Positions 24,475 through 30,139 of a stretch of DNA of 46,606 nucleotides are shown piece by piece. The translations under genes and the position numbers were made by a program. This DNA is from Myxococcota bacterium (GTDB lineage Bacteria; Myxococcota_C; UBA6777), in NCBI GenBank assembly GCA_023150835.1, contig JAKLKB010000003.1:1-46606 (forward strand), written 5' to 3'. The notes beneath the pieces were generated by a model. That model searched no databases. It was given only the letters and a program-made list of their open reading frames with translations, and was not told where the DNA came from. Each line of letters opens with the position of its first letter. Position 1 is the stretch's first letter.

Positions 24475-25152
24475 TCACCCGAGATCTTCTTCCTTGACAT
24501 CATACACAACGGGTTGTGCGCGATAATCTTGAAGTTTTTTCATCCCTTTGAGCGTGCGCGCCAGCACTTTTTGCATCACTTGGTAGTTTGGAAGCTGGTG
24601 GCGGCGAAAGAGTGCGTATCCGCTCCACATCAGCTGTGCGCAGATATCCACGGGAACTTGCCCAGTTTGCGCACCAAGCCCGGGGATGGCCACCGAACGG
24701 ATCGGATCTGCGGGGTGTTTGTCGTTGTGGATGTGGATGGCTTGAAACGCCGCAGCGCAAGCCAACGCAACATTGACGGTTCCGCTGATGTCTTGGGCGG
24801 ATTCGTTCATGGTAGGTGTGGAGATCAGATAGCGCGGGATCTCCGCCCCCGTCTCCACACAAGTCGCACAACCCACCGGCAAAAAGCCATCGAATTGTTC
24901 CGCGATCGCGAATTGTACGCGCTCTTGGATGATATCGCCAAAATGCTCCACCAACACCCGATCCAATCCCCCGTCCATCTCGCCATGCGAGTTGGTGGGC
25001 GTCACCCAAGCATCGACCTCTTGCCGCAAGATCGAACCGTGACGGATCTCCAACTCCAACTCATCCAACGTACCCTCTCGCGCCAAAAATACTTCGCGCC
25101 AAGCCTTCATCATCTCTCGGTTGAGATCGATCAACACCACTTTTGTTTTCAC
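24475..25152 (-). CDS. Macrodomain protein, probable ADP-ribose binding or hydrolysis
   Basis: The 225-residue product carries macrodomain loops: TPTNSHGEMDGGLDRVL (about 51-67), the NxxGxxDGG-type substrate loop, and AIPGLGAQTGQVP (about 154-166), the Gly-rich phosphate loop. ISGTVNVALACAAAF and a DII(Q/E)R segment also fit the fold. Macrodomains bind ADP-ribose and many remove it from proteins. The GTG start at 25152 is fixed by GGGAGG six bases upstream; an earlier in-frame start lacks this. It lies 76 bp downstream of the PARP gene on the same strand, so the two probably form a writer and reader/eraser pair. Hydrolase activity cannot be told from binding by sequence alone. Confidence 0.85.
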   Translation of the reverse strand: MKTKVVLIDLNREMMKAWREVFLAREGTLDELELEIRHGSILRQEVDAWVTPTNSHGEMDGGLDRVLVEHFGDIIQERVQFAIAEQFDGFLPVGCATCVETGAEIPRYLISTPTMNESAQDISGTVNVALACAAAFQAIHIHNDKHPADPIRSVAIPGLGAQTGQVPVDICAQLMWSGYALFRRHQLPNYQVMQKVLARTLKGMKKLQDYRAQPVVYDVKEEDLG

Positions 25153-25158
25153 CGCGAA

Positions 25159-25164
25159 CCTCCC
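25159..25164 (-). promoter_or_regulatory. Ribosome binding site fixing the GTG start of the macrodomain gene
   Basis: GGGAGG on the minus strand is spaced six bases from GTG 25152-25150. It is the strongest site near the N-terminus and lies inside the longer open frame. Confidence 0.6.
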
Positions 25165-25228
25165 TTCGGATCGGCCTTTCACGCCTCATCCATCCATGTC
25201 CGACACAGCCTCCACCGCACCGAACCGC

Positions 25229-26683
25229 TCAGTACCATACGCGACCACCGCGAAACTCCACAAGATACGCCAGTTTCTGCTGTTTCTCGTCGTATACCAC
25301 AAACTCATCGTCTTCGAATTCCGTCCCGCGAACTCCGTGACAACTATGATACCCCTTCGGTGGAGCCTTGATACCGTACGTGATCTCTTCGTATTGCTTG
25401 ACGTGACCCAGCGCAACTTGGGCGATCGCCATGATCGAAGTTCCTTTTTTTCCCGCCGAAGTATAGCCCGAACTCGTACAAGCAGCGTTCCCAAAATACA
25501 TACCGCTCCCCAACCACCCTTCGTCCGTACGACCCACACCAAGCTTCACCACCACCTTCGGCATCAAGAGACCCCGCGACAAGATCCCCACCCAGTTTTG
25601 GATCCGCGAGCCATGAAAAAGCAGTTGATCGTTTCCGATATCGGCCAGATAACGGGCCTCTTCTTCGGGACGCGACACTTTGTAGATCTGCAAGACTTCG
25701 ATATCGTCCGTATCCACTTGGCTTTCCAATACCAAATCCTTGATCTTTTTGTGCTCGCTGCTTTTCGCCTCGATCGCTTCGACAGAACAGCCCAAAGCGG
25801 CATACTCTTCTTCTTCCTTCGCCTCGTGCAACAAGCCGCTCTCACCGTTGACGCGCAACATATCCTTCATCAATTGCAACGTCTCTTGTTTGGTTTGGTA
25901 GTTGTTTAAATCGCGGATAATCGCGGCTTCAGCAGCTTCACGGCTCCGACCAAAACGGTGCGGGATCACGGTGTAAAAAGCACTTGATAAATCGCGCAAG
26001 GTTTCCGCCACTTTCGGCGTCTGCTTTTTCTTTTGGAGCTGTTTGTAGATATCACCAAGGATCGATTCTCCCTGCTCGATCTGTCCGATGGTGAGGACAC
26101 CAAGAGGCGTCTCGATACCATGCGCGGTCACTTTGGCCTGAACACGCGAAGTCAGCGCTCCCACCGCTTCGTCGTACAGATAACGCACCAAACCACGCAC
26201 GGTCTCCTCCAGTCGCGGCAACGAAACTTTCGGCTCAGCGGGCTTTTCAACCTCGTTCACTTCGATCCGCTGCAAGGTCTTTTCGTCGACCTCGCCGCTG
26301 CTGCTTCCTCGTGCTTTTTGTGAGCCGATCTTGCTGCTCGCCAACGCCACTTCGCGGTAGCCTTTGCGCGCCGAAGTCTTTTCTTTGTAGATCTGATCGT
26401 ACACCGCTTCCGCTTCGGGCTTGCTATCGAGATAACGACACTCTTTCTGCCCGCTGTCTGGATTGTTTTCCAAATCATCTGTGCGGCCATAATGCGTAAA
26501 AACCCGAAACGCTTGACCTTTTTTGATGGCTTTCGCGTGATGCAACTCGATGGCGTAATACTTGTTTCGATTGGTCTTGATATCCGTCACTTGCAACACG
26601 GCCTTCTTGAGGATCTCGAACTCTTCTGGATACTTCGGTTGCCCTGCGTCATCCCACTTCCACGTCACCACTCGAACCGCCAT
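25229..26683 (-). CDS. Bacterial poly(ADP-ribose) polymerase (WGR-like, PRD and ART domains)
   Basis: A 484-residue protein with the domain order of DNA-dependent PARPs. Residues about 40-130 resemble a WGR domain (YYAIELHH, FRVFTHYGRTDD), though the Trp of the motif is Tyr here. Residues about 155-290 match the helical regulatory domain, with PLGVLTIGQIEQGESIL and LSSAFYTVIPHRFG. The C-terminus is the catalytic ART fold with the H-Y-E triad: LLFHGSR (His357), GSGMYFG (Tyr396) and DDEFVVYD (Glu460). The Glu is the residue that permits polymer formation in PARP1-like enzymes. There is no zinc finger or BRCT domain. Start 26683 has AAAGGAG six bases upstream. The macrodomain gene follows on the same strand. 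PARPs are rare in bacteria, so horizontal transfer is plausible. Confidence 0.92.
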   Translation of the reverse strand: MAVRVVTWKWDDAGQPKYPEEFEILKKAVLQVTDIKTNRNKYYAIELHHAKAIKKGQAFRVFTHYGRTDDLENNPDSGQKECRYLDSKPEAEAVYDQIYKEKTSARKGYREVALASSKIGSQKARGSSSGEVDEKTLQRIEVNEVEKPAEPKVSLPRLEETVRGLVRYLYDEAVGALTSRVQAKVTAHGIETPLGVLTIGQIEQGESILGDIYKQLQKKKQTPKVAETLRDLSSAFYTVIPHRFGRSREAAEAAIIRDLNNYQTKQETLQLMKDMLRVNGESGLLHEAKEEEEYAALGCSVEAIEAKSSEHKKIKDLVLESQVDTDDIEVLQIYKVSRPEEEARYLADIGNDQLLFHGSRIQNWVGILSRGLLMPKVVVKLGVGRTDEGWLGSGMYFGNAACTSSGYTSAGKKGTSIMAIAQVALGHVKQYEEITYGIKAPPKGYHSCHGVRGTEFEDDEFVVYDEKQQKLAYLVEFRGGRVWY

Positions 26684-26796
26684 CGCCAACTCCTTTCGTT
26701 TCTCAAACACCGACAACGCCCTTCGCTCTGTCGTACGCTTGGCTCTCTTTCTTGACGCATCCTGACACACTCGCGTAAAAAATCAAATCCATAGAG

Positions 26797-26961: not shown

Positions 26962-27140
26962 TATCCTATATCGAGGATGACGTCAGCCCCACCAAAAGAA
27001 AAGGTCGATGCAGGCATCTTTTGGCGAATTACCCCTTGCGCTGCTCCGCCAATTTACGCAAGATTCAAACCCACCAAACGCCACTCCGAGAGAACCCAAA
27101 AGTCTACGCAATCCCCTCACTCCAAGCAAAGGAACCCACC

Positions 27141-27920
27141 ATGCAGATATCTTGTCCTAGCTGCAAAAATCCCGTGATGTTCGAAGATATCAATCACAAA
27201 AAACGAATCGCCAAATGCGCTTCTTGTCACGAAGTCTTTCGTTTTTCTGAAGATGACCTCACCACCACAAACTCCTCACACAAAGCCAACGAATTAGACA
27301 CTCCAGACGCCCAAGAAACAAAAGAGGAAAGTCACACAAAAGCCCCTCCAAGATCCGCCGATCCCTCTCAAGAACCCGCATTATTCGCCCTTCCTTCAGG
27401 CGTAACGCTCCAACGCGACGAGCAACAACTGCGCATCCACTGGCGTTGGTATACACCCGTGGCCTATCTCATGGTGTTCATCGGCATCGCTTGGAATGTC
27501 TCCCTGCTCTCGATGATCTGGAAAACATTCAGCGGTGATTTCATTGCTGAAGTCGTTCCGTGTTTTTTTCTTGTCTTTGGTTTCGGCCTAATCTACGCTG
27601 GCATCGTATTCCTCGTCAACGAAACCACGATCAGCGTCCAACACAAAACACTCTCCATCCGCCATACTCCTTTGCCTTGGTCGGGAAATCGTACCTTTTC
27701 TGTTGATGATCTCGAACAATTCTTCTGCAAACAACACATCTGCCGTAAAAAACGCGAAACATCGGTGGGCTACGGACTTTATGCCATCTCACGCAACGGA
27801 AAACAAATCGAGATCCTCAATGGCATCGAAGATCCCGAAAAAGTATGGTTCATCGAGCGAATTCTCGAAGAGCACCTTGGCATCGCCGATCAAAGAGTAT
27901 TCGGCGAATACAAGGGCTAA
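27141..27920 (+). CDS. Zinc-ribbon membrane protein, paralogue 1
   Basis: A 259-residue protein. An N-terminal zinc ribbon has two CxxC pairs (Cys5/Cys8 and Cys26/Cys29) in a CPSCKNPV...KCASCHEVF layout, of the kind seen in MJ0042-type ribbons. A charged, Ser/Thr/Pro-rich linker runs to about 90. Two transmembrane helices follow (about 112-134 and 142-166). The C-terminal cytoplasm-facing domain has TTISVQHKTLSIRHTPLPW and ends EEHLGIADQRVFGEYKG. The start at 27141 is preceded by CAAGCAAAGGAACCCACC, a leader shared by its two intact paralogues. Function is unknown. The fold suggests a membrane-bound sensor or scaffold. Confidence 0.8.
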   Translation: MQISCPSCKNPVMFEDINHKKRIAKCASCHEVFRFSEDDLTTTNSSHKANELDTPDAQETKEESHTKAPPRSADPSQEPALFALPSGVTLQRDEQQLRIHWRWYTPVAYLMVFIGIAWNVSLLSMIWKTFSGDFIAEVVPCFFLVFGFGLIYAGIVFLVNETTISVQHKTLSIRHTPLPWSGNRTFSVDDLEQFFCKQHICRKKRETSVGYGLYAISRNGKQIEILNGIEDPEKVWFIERILEEHLGIADQRVFGEYKG

Positions 27921-28034
27921 TACGAGATCCGCCTGTTGAGTGATCGTAAAAACGTAGGGGCAGCCCCCTGTGGCTGCCCAAGGATAGGGCGTCTGGGCGC
28001 TATCCTTCGAGCACAGATCACTCGGATTTCGTAT
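27920..28034 (+). mobile_element. Family B element, full length
   Basis: 115 bp with ends ATACGAGATCCG and CGGATTTCGTAT and inner inverted segments TGATC/GATCA. The core holds a GGGCAGCC/GGCTGCCC hairpin. It starts at the last base of the paralogue 1 stop codon. No target duplication is visible. Confidence 0.75.
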
Positions 28035-28119
28035 CAGAGGGTGTTTGCGAAATAGCGATATCTTTTGGACTGGTACACAGAAACATCGGAGGAATGGACG
28101 TCTTGTGATGTCCCCTCTT

Positions 28120-28214
28120 ATACGAAATCCGCCCGTTGAGTTATCGTAAAAATGTAGGGGCAGACAGGTGTGGCTGCCCAACCATCGGGCGGTTCGCGAA
28201 CCGCCCCTACATCA
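28120..28214 (+). mobile_element. Family B element, partial or hybrid copy
   Basis: The left end ATACGAAATCCGCCCGTTGAG and the GTAAAAATGTAGGGGCAG segment are family B. The right half switches to GGGCGGTTCGCGAACCGCCC, the core palindrome of family A, and the family B right end is missing. It looks like a recombinant or nested element. Confidence 0.55.
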
Positions 28215-28287
28215 TGCGATCATACATGACGCGGAGATATCGCGTTCAGATCTCGCTATGTTAGACACCCTCTAACCGATATCACGC

Positions 28288-28335
28288 TCGCATCGCCGAT
28301 CAAAAAGTATTCGGCGAATACAAGCGCCGATCGGC
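28288..28335 (+). pseudogene. 3' remnant of a zinc-ribbon paralogue
   Basis: GCATCGCCGATCAAAAAGTA and then TTCGGCGAATACAAGCGCC are nearly identical to the last codons of paralogue 1 (GIADQRVFGEYKG). No upstream coding region survives. It marks an additional, almost fully deleted copy between paralogues 1 and 2. Confidence 0.65.
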
Positions 28336-28397
28336 TCGACATCGAAAAAGAAACCCCCAAAGGACGAAGCAACCCACTCCAAGCAAAGGAATCCACC

Positions 28398-29243
28398 ATG
28401 CATCTCTCTTGTCCTAGTTGCAAAAATACCGTGATATCCGAAGATATCAACATCAACAAAATGATCGCCAAATGTGCTTCTTGCCAAGCCGTCTTTCGTT
28501 TTTCCGAAGACGACCTCGCCACCGCAAGCTCCCAACATAACACCAACGACCAAGAAGCCCCCATCAAGGAAGAAAGCACGGGTAGAGAACACAGTACAGA
28601 CTCGAATGACCCATCCCAAAAACGCCCCCAAGAACCCATGGTTGGGTTGTTTTGGTTGTCAGGCTTGATCGACTTATTTCAAAAATACCTCCAAGAGCCC
28701 GCCCAACCCGACGTCCTCGCAGGCGTAACGTTCCAACGTGACGAGCAACACCTGCGCATCCACTGGCGTTGGTTTCGGCCTGCCGCTTACTTCGTGGCGG
28801 GCGTTAGCTTGTTTGTGAACCTTTTCTTGATCTCTTGGATGAGAAACGTTGTGGGGAGTGGTTTGGGGGAAATCCTGTTTTCGTTACCTTTTTGTGTGGC
28901 GGGCGGGGGCCTTATCTTCTTGACCCTCGCTCTCTTCCTCAACGAAACCACCGTGACCGTCCAACACGGAAAACTCTCCATCCGCCACGCCCCGTTGCCT
29001 TGGTGGGGCAATCGCACCCTTCCCATCGAGGATCTCGAACAACTCTTCTGCAAAAAAAATCTCACACACAGCAAAGACGGTAAAACAGGCTTCTACGAAC
29101 TTCACGCCATCTTGCGCAACGGACAACAGATCACTCTACTTCAATACCACGAAGAACCCGAAAAAGTCTTATTCATCGAACAACTTCTCGAAGAACACCT
29201 CGGCATCGTCGATCAACCTGTACTCGGCGAATACAAGGGCTGA
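28398..29243 (+). CDS. Zinc-ribbon membrane protein, paralogue 2
   Basis: A 281-residue paralogue of the protein at 27141-27920. The CxxC pairs (CPSCKNTV, KCASCQAVF), RFSEDDLATA, VTFQRDEQHLRIHWRWF, two transmembrane helices (about 133-155 and 163-190), TTVTVQHGKLSIRHAPLPWW and the end EEHLGIVDQPVLGEYKG are all conserved. The linker between ribbon and membrane is longer and contains an insertion with MVGLFWLSGLIDLF. The start has the shared leader CAAGCAAAGGAATCCACC. Paralogue 3 starts 89 bp downstream on the same strand. Function is unknown. Confidence 0.8.
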   Translation: MHLSCPSCKNTVISEDININKMIAKCASCQAVFRFSEDDLATASSQHNTNDQEAPIKEESTGREHSTDSNDPSQKRPQEPMVGLFWLSGLIDLFQKYLQEPAQPDVLAGVTFQRDEQHLRIHWRWFRPAAYFVAGVSLFVNLFLISWMRNVVGSGLGEILFSLPFCVAGGGLIFLTLALFLNETTVTVQHGKLSIRHAPLPWWGNRTLPIEDLEQLFCKKNLTHSKDGKTGFYELHAILRNGQQITLLQYHEEPEKVLFIEQLLEEHLGIVDQPVLGEYKG

Positions 29244-29332
29244 TCGGCTCAATGCCCAGCAGAGACAGTCTAGAACAAACAAAACCCTACATCTCCCGCA
29301 ATTTCCCCTCAATCCAAGCAAAGGAGCCCACC

Positions 29333-30139
29333 ATGCAGATCTTCTGCCCCCACTGCAAAAATCCGATCAATTCTGAAGGCATCAACCTTGACAGGCTGAT
29401 CGCTAAATGTACTTCTTGCCGTGCTGTCTTTCGTTTTTCCGAAGACGAACTCGCCACGACAAGCCCCGAACGCGATGACAACAACCCAAAGCCTACCACG
29501 GCTCAAGACACAGAAGAAAACAGCCTCAGAAAAGGCCCTATCAACCGCCCTCAAAGACGTTCTCCTCGTATCCAAGAGCCGATCCCCCTCGATGTTCCCG
29601 AAGGCATGACGCTGCAACACGACGAACATTCTCTGCGTGTCCGTTGGCGCTGGTTTACGTTTGAAGCGAGCGCTGTCGCGCTTGTTTGCGCGCTCTTCGT
29701 CGGCGCGGCTCTGGCCCTCTACAACGAAACCAAGTCGAGTTACGCGTATGACTCTCTCTGGCCCATTCTGTTCTTAATCCTGTGCTTTCTCGGCGTAAGC
29801 ATGGCCCTTTTGTACTACTCTCTCGCACTTCTCATCAACGCCACCACCCTCACCATCCAAAACGGGCTGTTGTCTATCCAGCACGCCCCTTTGCCTTGGT
29901 GGGGCAACCGCACCCTTCCTGCCGAAGAATTCGAGCAGTTCTACTGCAAACAACGTGTCTCCCGCGGGAAATACCGCCTGTTCTTTACCTACGAACTCCA
30001 CGCCATCTTGCGCAAAAAACAACGAATTAAACTTCTCTCGGGAATAAGTGAGATAGAAAAAGTCTTATTTCTCGAACGACTCATCGAAGATCATCTCGGC
30101 ATTGTCGATCGACCTGTACTCGGTGAATTAGAACCTTGA
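29333..30139 (+). CDS. Zinc-ribbon membrane protein, paralogue 3
   Basis: A 268-residue paralogue with CPHCKNPI and KCTSCRAVF ribbons, RFSEDELATT, VPEGMTLQHDEHSLRVRWRW, two transmembrane helices (about 116-134 and 146-171), TTLTIQNGLLSIQHAPLPWW and RLIEDHLGIVDRPVLGELEP. The leader CAAGCAAAGGAGCCCACC sets the start at 29333. It is the most diverged of the three intact copies, especially in the membrane region. It is followed 47 bp later by a broken fourth copy. Confidence 0.8.
   Translation: MQIFCPHCKNPINSEGINLDRLIAKCTSCRAVFRFSEDELATTSPERDDNNPKPTTAQDTEENSLRKGPINRPQRRSPRIQEPIPLDVPEGMTLQHDEHSLRVRWRWFTFEASAVALVCALFVGAALALYNETKSSYAYDSLWPILFLILCFLGVSMALLYYSLALLINATTLTIQNGLLSIQHAPLPWWGNRTLPAEEFEQFYCKQRVSRGKYRLFFTYELHAILRKKQRIKLLSGISEIEKVLFLERLIEDHLGIVDRPVLGELEP

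What the first reader, a model, noticed from the sequence alone, without database searches (positions are those of the whole stretch)
24475..26683. PARP with full H-Y-E triad paired with a macrodomain protein
A DNA-dependent-type PARP (WGR-like, regulatory and ART domains) is rare in bacteria. Here it is followed 76 bp later on the same strand by a macrodomain gene with its own strong ribosome binding site. The ART site has His, Tyr and the polymerase-type Glu. The two together suggest a complete ADP-ribosylation writer and reader/eraser module, possibly in DNA-damage response or phage defence. The WGR motif has Tyr instead of Trp, so DNA-break sensing may differ.
Basis: partly seen in the sequence, partly recalled or inferred. 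Interest (0 to 1): 0.85.

Follow-up and report, generated by a model that had tools for sequence, protein, structure and literature searches.

The report
Bacterial PARP4-type enzyme with macrodomain partner
A bacterium of the Myxococcota type carries a conserved two-gene set: an enzyme that looks like the human vault enzyme PARP4 but keeps a DNA-break-sensing front end, followed by a macrodomain protein that probably handles its ADP-ribose mark. This is unusual because bacterial PARPs generally resemble PARP1 and have no such partner.

Summary
Window 25229-26683 (-) encodes a 484-aa WGR-regulatory-ART PARP with H357-Y396-E460. 76 bp downstream, 24475-25152 (-) encodes a macrodomain protein. 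Both are under strong purifying selection. The pair is also adjacent in a sister species and in a second genus with different flanking genes (PARP 62%, macrodomain 55% identical). None of ~90 other prokaryotic or viral PARP loci scanned has a macrodomain nearby.

Two readings need correction. Tyr in place of Trp in WGR is the usual bacterial form. H-Y-E does not imply polymer synthesis here: the catalytic domain belongs with human PARP4, not PARP1, by E-value, tree and AU test. It shares PARP4's altered acceptor site (T403 for PARP1 K903; E457-D458 for L985-Y986), held to restrict PARP4 to single ADP-ribose; all 86 other PARPs compared keep K.

Best explanation: a DNA-end-responsive mono-ADP-ribosyltransferase whose product is removed or read by the macrodomain. 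PARG occurs in exactly the PARP-bearing relatives, so polymer synthesis is not excluded. Defence is unsupported. The genome also encodes a major-vault-protein homologue; a bacterial PARP4-vault link is possible but unproven. New variant of a known kind.

The parts
25229..26683 (-). PARP4-type ADP-ribosyltransferase, 484 aa (WGR - helical regulatory domain - ART)
   Evidence: Pfam WGR, PARP_reg, PARP all above cut-off; PDB best hit human PARP4 8e-47; AlphaFold model pLDDT 78, best fold match PARP4 8sx1 Z 31.1 over 302 residues, and PARP1-DNA 4dqy Z 28.7 over 389 residues spanning WGR-HD-ART
26348..26605 (-). WGR domain (residues 27-112), with N40-K41, Y65-G66-R67, K102 and K107-G108-Y109
   Evidence: G66, R67 and Y109 in 87/87 other PARPs; N40, K41 and K102 invariant in alignments
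25856..26212 (-). helical (autoinhibitory) regulatory domain, residues 158-276
   Evidence: PF02877 7e-17
25250..25762 (-). ART catalytic domain, residues 308-478
   Evidence: PF00644 5e-29; 49.6% identical to human PARP4 over 127 aligned ART positions against 34.5% to PARP1
25613..25615 (-). catalytic His357
   Evidence: aligned with PARP1 H862
25496..25498 (-). catalytic Tyr396
   Evidence: aligned with PARP1 Y896
25475..25477 (-). Thr403 in place of the acceptor-site Lys (PARP1 K903, PARP4 T484)
   Evidence: K in all 86 other readable PARPs
25310..25315 (-). Glu457-Asp458 at the acceptor-site positions L985-Y986 of PARP1 (E544-D545 in PARP4)
25304..25306 (-). catalytic Glu460
   Evidence: aligned with PARP1 E988
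24475..25152 (-). macrodomain protein, 225 aa (Macro2-like fold)
   Evidence: PF01661 9e-10; AlphaFold pLDDT 86, best match yeast YMR087W 1njr Z 17.9 over 187 residues; dN/dS 0.05
24991..24993 (-). Asn54 of the ADP-ribose loop (MacroD2 Asn92 position by motif)
   Evidence: invariant in alignment A2; MacroD2 Asn92 role
24961..24963 (-). Asp64 of the G-G-x-D motif (MacroD2 Asp102 position by motif)
   Evidence: invariant in A2 and A4; MacroD2 Asp102
25159..25165 (-). Shine-Dalgarno AGGGAGG of the macrodomain gene
26690..26696 (-). Shine-Dalgarno AAAGGAG of the PARP gene

Best explanation
A chromosomal stress-response pair. The PARP binds DNA ends through its WGR domain; this relieves the helical domain, and the ART domain transfers single ADP-ribose units (mono-ADP-ribosylation) to itself or nearby targets. 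The macrodomain protein encoded directly downstream binds or removes that mark or its breakdown product. A separate PARG on the same contig clears ADP-ribose linkages elsewhere. Shown here: domains, triad, PARP4-type catalytic clade and acceptor site, conserved WGR contact residues, conserved pairing, PARG co-occurrence. Inferred: co-transcription, DNA-end activation, mono rather than poly product, eraser or reader role, and the cellular stress served.
For: The catalytic domain groups with human PARP4 (100/98 support; 100/99 with the acceptor-site columns removed), and a clade of human PARP1-4 excluding the window PARPs is rejected (AU p 0.004). Acceptor site PARP4-like: T403 and E457-D458; 86/86 other PARPs keep K. 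K903A turns PARP1 output from poly to mono, and PARP4 is mono despite H-Y-E (PMC10711553). WGR contact residues are kept, whereas PARP4 has Phe-Leu-Leu at the WGR motif. Pair adjacency in two genera with different flanks; no intrinsic-terminator match in the 76-bp gap. Related macrodomains (49-56% identical) in actinobacterial plasmid records are fused or adjacent to an ART protein (for the L049 locus the ART was not domain-tested).
Against: No biochemical data. PARG occurs in the same three genomes as the PARP and not in the two without it, which would fit polymer metabolism. The human PARP4 branch is long (1.7 changes per site) and only one eukaryotic PARP4 could be included. YMR087W, the closest macrodomain fold, is reported to lack de-MARylation activity. 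No shared regulatory site was found upstream of the PARP between genera.
Confidence: 0.55

Rival explanations
1. A true DNA-dependent poly(ADP-ribose) polymerase forming a full PAR cycle with PARG (chain cleavage) and the macrodomain (terminal unit removal), as proposed for Herpetosiphon.
For: H-Y-E triad; PARG with GGG-X7-QEE in exactly the three PARP-bearing genomes of the family; the Herpetosiphon PARP makes long PAR on DNA (PMC4245714).
Against: Acceptor-site Lys, Met and Leu-Tyr all replaced, Lys and Leu-Tyr in the PARP4 manner. Bacterial PARG usually occurs without PARP and also acts on RNA-ADP-ribose. The PARG pattern is 3/3 against 0/2 related genomes, p 0.1.
Confidence: 0.25
2. A toxin-antitoxin or anti-phage module: ART toxin neutralised by the macrodomain, as in DarTG.
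For: The ART-macrodomain two-gene layout resembles DarTG; weak DarG profile hit (E 0.0013); PARPs of the general family are carried by jumbo phages and large plasmids.
Against: Autoinhibited architecture, strong purifying selection, ordinary neighbours (presequence-type M16 protease, beta-CASP nuclease), no PADLOC hit for the PARP. The genome has a genuine DarTG elsewhere.
Confidence: 0.1
3. The PARP works with the bacterial major-vault-protein homologue as a minimal vault-PARP system.
For: PARP4-type catalytic domain; 966-aa MVP-like protein in the same genome and a homologue in the sister species, matching solved MVP over 554 residues at 5e-19.
Against: The third PARP genome (86% complete) lacks MVP, one relative has MVP without PARP, the two genes are on different contigs, and the PARP lacks PARP4's BRCT, VIT, vWA and MVP-interacting parts (484 aa). 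TROVE (TEP1-type) is absent.
Confidence: 0.06

Closest known systems
Human PARP4 (vault PARP, clade 5) catalytic region
   Same: HD-ART sequence (35% over 302 residues by structure), RTDxGxLGSGxYF and FEDDEF segments, Thr at the K903 position, H-Y-E
   Different: Keeps YGR and the DNA-contact residues in WGR; lacks BRCT, VIT, vWA and MVP-interacting parts; bacterial; paired with a macrodomain gene
Bacterial clade-1-like PARPs (Herpetosiphon aurantiacus, Clostridioides difficile CD160)
   Same: WGR-HD-ART layout, Y in YGR, KGY motif, H-Y-E
   Different: The bacterial and phage PARPs compared here are only 21-33% identical overall and keep acceptor-site K (and nearly all M); no macrodomain neighbour found. 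The named Herpetosiphon and C. difficile records themselves were not fetched
Yeast YMR087W (Macro2-type ADP-ribose-1''-phosphatase)
   Same: Best fold match of the macrodomain, Z 17.9, 26% identity, Asn and Asp of the loop
   Different: Its His145 position is Ser in the window protein (alignment)
DarT-DarG toxin-antitoxin
   Same: ADP-ribosyltransferase gene followed by macrodomain gene
   Different: Transferase is PARP-type with WGR and HD, not DarT; macrodomain only distantly DarG-like

Membership tests
DNA-dependent PARP (PARP1/2/3, clade 1) | WGR-HD-ART architecture | tested here: met
   4dqy aligned over residues 1-481
DNA-dependent PARP (PARP1/2/3, clade 1) | catalytic domain groups with PARP1/2/3 | tested here: not met
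   groups with PARP4
DNA-dependent PARP (PARP1/2/3, clade 1) | acceptor-site Lys (K903), kept in PARP1, PARP2 and PARP3 | tested here: not met
   T403
DNA-dependent PARP (PARP1/2/3, clade 1) | activation by DNA breaks | not testable with these tools
   only WGR contact residues could be checked: present
PARP4 / vault PARP (clade 5) | PARP4-type catalytic domain and acceptor site | tested here: met
PARP4 / vault PARP (clade 5) | BRCT, VIT, vWA and MVP-interacting regions | tested here: not met
   484-aa protein with only WGR, PARP_reg and PARP
PARP4 / vault PARP (clade 5) | association with major vault protein | tested here: inconclusive
   MVP homologue in genome and sister species, not in G002
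Macrodomain (Pfam Macro) | macro fold matching the Macro profile | tested here: met
MacroD-type mono-ADP-ribosylhydrolase | loop Asn and Asp (Asn92/Asp102 of MacroD2) | tested here: inconclusive
   N54 and D64 at the same spacing and invariant, but the best fold match is Macro2-type
DarTG toxin-antitoxin | DarT-family transferase upstream of DarG | tested here: not met
   no DarT hit for the PARP, weak DarG hit; the genome's real DarTG is elsewhere
Microbial PARG | GGG-X6-8-QEE in the partner gene outside the window | tested here: met
   GGGFLGGSQAQEE, PF10021 5e-51

The most novel reading that the evidence does not exclude
The PARP4 (vault PARP) catalytic type exists in bacteria with a working DNA-end sensor, together with a full-length major-vault-protein homologue, and the vault-PARP association predates eukaryotes or moved between bacteria and eukaryotes; here the mono-ADP-ribose mark is handled by a dedicated macrodomain.
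Probability: 0.08. Interest if true: 0.9.

Novelty: new variant of a known kind. Interest (0 to 1): 0.6.

Why it matters
[quoted passage not shown] A bacterial enzyme joining a PARP1-like DNA sensor to a PARP4-like active site lets the mono/poly question be tested with one residue (T403) in a single 484-aa protein, gives a tractable PARP4 relative, and supplies a rare conserved PARP-macrodomain gene pair. The vault-protein homologue in the same genome makes a bacterial vault-PARP hypothesis directly testable.

Tried and rejected
Defence-system reading: PADLOC gave nothing for the PARP and a weak DarG hit only; neighbours are not a defence island. Search for macrodomains next to other PARPs: none in about 90 plasmid, phage, viral and unnamed-family PARP loci with the family profile, which does detect generic macrodomains. 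Shared upstream regulatory site between genera: none visible. TEP1-type TROVE domain: absent in the five relatives. Viral scan with the single PARP or macrodomain sequence: no relatives. Genome-contig scan with the single PARP: only the sister species. Search for window-type PARPs in the 8-genome phylum of another MVP-bearing genome: none, which shows little. An early residue count with a wrong column offset was discarded and redone.

Full report
What is there. Two genes on the minus strand: a 484-aa PARP (26683 to 25229) and, after 76 bp, a 225-aa macrodomain protein (25152 to 24475), each with its own Shine-Dalgarno sequence. Pfam places WGR at residues 27-112, the regulatory domain at 158-276 and the catalytic domain from 308, all above cut-off; the second protein is a Macro domain. 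This is the only PARP found in the 7.6-Mb genome. The window is contig C70 of that genome.

Is it more than chance? Between the window and the sister species dN/dS is 0.08 for the PARP and 0.05 for the macrodomain, so both are maintained proteins. In a second genus (G002) the PARP is 62% and the macrodomain 55% identical, again adjacent on one strand, while the flanking genes are different: MerR regulator, peroxidase and histidine kinase instead of the M16 presequence-type protease and beta-CASP nuclease. Two other family members lack both the PARP and a close macrodomain orthologue. A profile of this macrodomain family, which also detects generic macrodomains, found none near about 90 other PARPs on plasmids, phages, viral contigs and an unnamed 6-Mb family that I take to be Herpetosiphonaceae. 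The pairing is therefore a trait of this lineage rather than of bacterial PARPs in general.

What kind of PARP? The sequence best matches human PARP4 among solved structures (8e-47, against 5e-25 for PARP1). Over the ART domain it is 49.6% identical to PARP4 and 34.5% to PARP1. In a tree of 24 PARPs the three window-type PARPs join human PARP4 with 100/98 support. With the acceptor-site columns removed, other viral PARPs added and a long-branched row dropped, support is 100/99. Holding human PARP1-4 together is rejected with p 0.004 in both data sets. The caution is that human PARP4 is a long branch and is the only eukaryotic PARP4 available here. The AlphaFold model (pLDDT 78) matches PARP4 8sx1 best (Z 31.1), with PARP1/2/3 at 28-30; the margin over the best PARP3 rows is about 1, so fold alone does not decide. 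PARP1 bound to DNA (4dqy) matches along the whole WGR-HD-ART length.

Mono or poly? H-Y-E is present but does not decide. PARP4 has it and is a mono-transferase; its acceptor site is altered at K903 (T484), L985-Y986 (E544-D545) and M890 (N471), and K903A converts PARP1 from poly to mono output (PMC10711553). The window PARP has T403, E457-D458 and W390 at these places. All 86 other readable prokaryotic and viral PARPs have K at that position; the scan pattern that fetched the viral ones fixed neighbouring positions, including the M/W one, but not this one. I therefore predict mono-ADP-ribosylation. Against this, a microbial PARG with the GGG-X7-QEE signature is found in the three PARP genomes and not in the two without, which would fit polymer. 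The sample is five related genomes (p 0.1), and bacterial PARG has other known substrates and mostly occurs without PARP, so I keep poly as the main rival.

DNA sensing. Tyr is the common bacterial form (PMC5966428; 76 of 87 here). G66, R67 and Y109 are universal in that set, and N40, K41 and K102 are invariant in two alignments. Human PARP4 by contrast has lost the WGR residues. The window enzyme thus combines a PARP1-like WGR with a PARP4-type active site; that it is activated by DNA ends is inferred, not shown.

The macrodomain. Its model (pLDDT 86) matches yeast YMR087W well above the rest (Z 17.9 against 15.3). YMR087W is described as a Macro2-type enzyme acting on ADP-ribose-1''-phosphate without de-MARylation (PMC6397177). 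However, the protein has Asn54 and Asp64 at the spacing of MacroD2 Asn92 and Asp102, invariant across the alignment. Its nearest relatives outside the family, 49-56% identical in four Actinobacteria plasmid records, lie in or beside a protein with an arginine-type ART domain (shown by Pfam in three of them) and, in the one case searched, a uracil-DNA-glycosylase-like domain. A link to ADP-ribosyltransferases has therefore arisen in two settings, which supports a role on ADP-ribosylated products; eraser against reader cannot be settled here.

Vault connection. The genome encodes a 966-aa major-vault-protein homologue (shoulder domain 8e-18, match to solved MVP over 554 residues at 5e-19), and the sister species has the counterpart. 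Across 386 sampled genomes, MVP-shoulder matches occur in 7 and full PARP in 4, with 3 shared. Two of those three are sister species and the third has a short MVP-like protein, so this is suggestive at most. Within the family the two genes do not track each other. No previous report of a bacterial PARP4-type PARP was found in the papers searched; the deltaproteobacterial PARPs of PMC5966428 and Plesiocystis (PMC4245714) could not be tested and may belong here.

Verdict. Real, conserved and unusual: a bacterial PARP4-type enzyme with a dedicated macrodomain partner. New variant of a known kind; the mechanism is inferred.

Noticed in passing
G000:C216:27402-30302 (L072:5403-8303, +); also L070, L071, L074:5670-8216: A 966-aa major vault protein homologue (MVP shoulder plus vault repeat) in the window's genome, with counterparts in its sister species and another relative.
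   Followed up: partly
L047:4971-7376; L048:4980-7437; L050:3058-5648: In Actinobacteria plasmids the closest outside relatives of the macrodomain are fused or adjacent to a protein with an arginine-type ART domain and (searched in one) a uracil-DNA-glycosylase-like domain: a possible DNA ADP-ribosylation and base-excision module.
   Followed up: partly
G000:C70:78666-79526 (L057:4667-5527, +): Microbial PARG with GGG-X7-QEE on the same contig as the window, present only in PARP-bearing relatives.
   Followed up: yes
L060:3344-5151 (G000:C87): A clear DarT-DarG operon elsewhere in the same genome (PADLOC 6e-64 and 3e-139).
   Followed up: yes
window 27021-30139 (+): Three tandem paralogous proteins beginning with a CPxCKN...CASC zinc-ribbon-like motif, divergently oriented from the PARP; also present in the sister species; no Pfam hit for the first.
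   Followed up: no
L021:3992-5923 (Xanthomonas phage XacN1): Jumbo phage PARP gene directly followed by a von Willebrand A domain gene; human PARP4 also contains a vWA domain.
   Followed up: no
G004:C4:41353-51591 (L054, L074): In a relative without PARP, a distant macrodomain relative and the MVP homologue lie about 10 kb apart.
   Followed up: no
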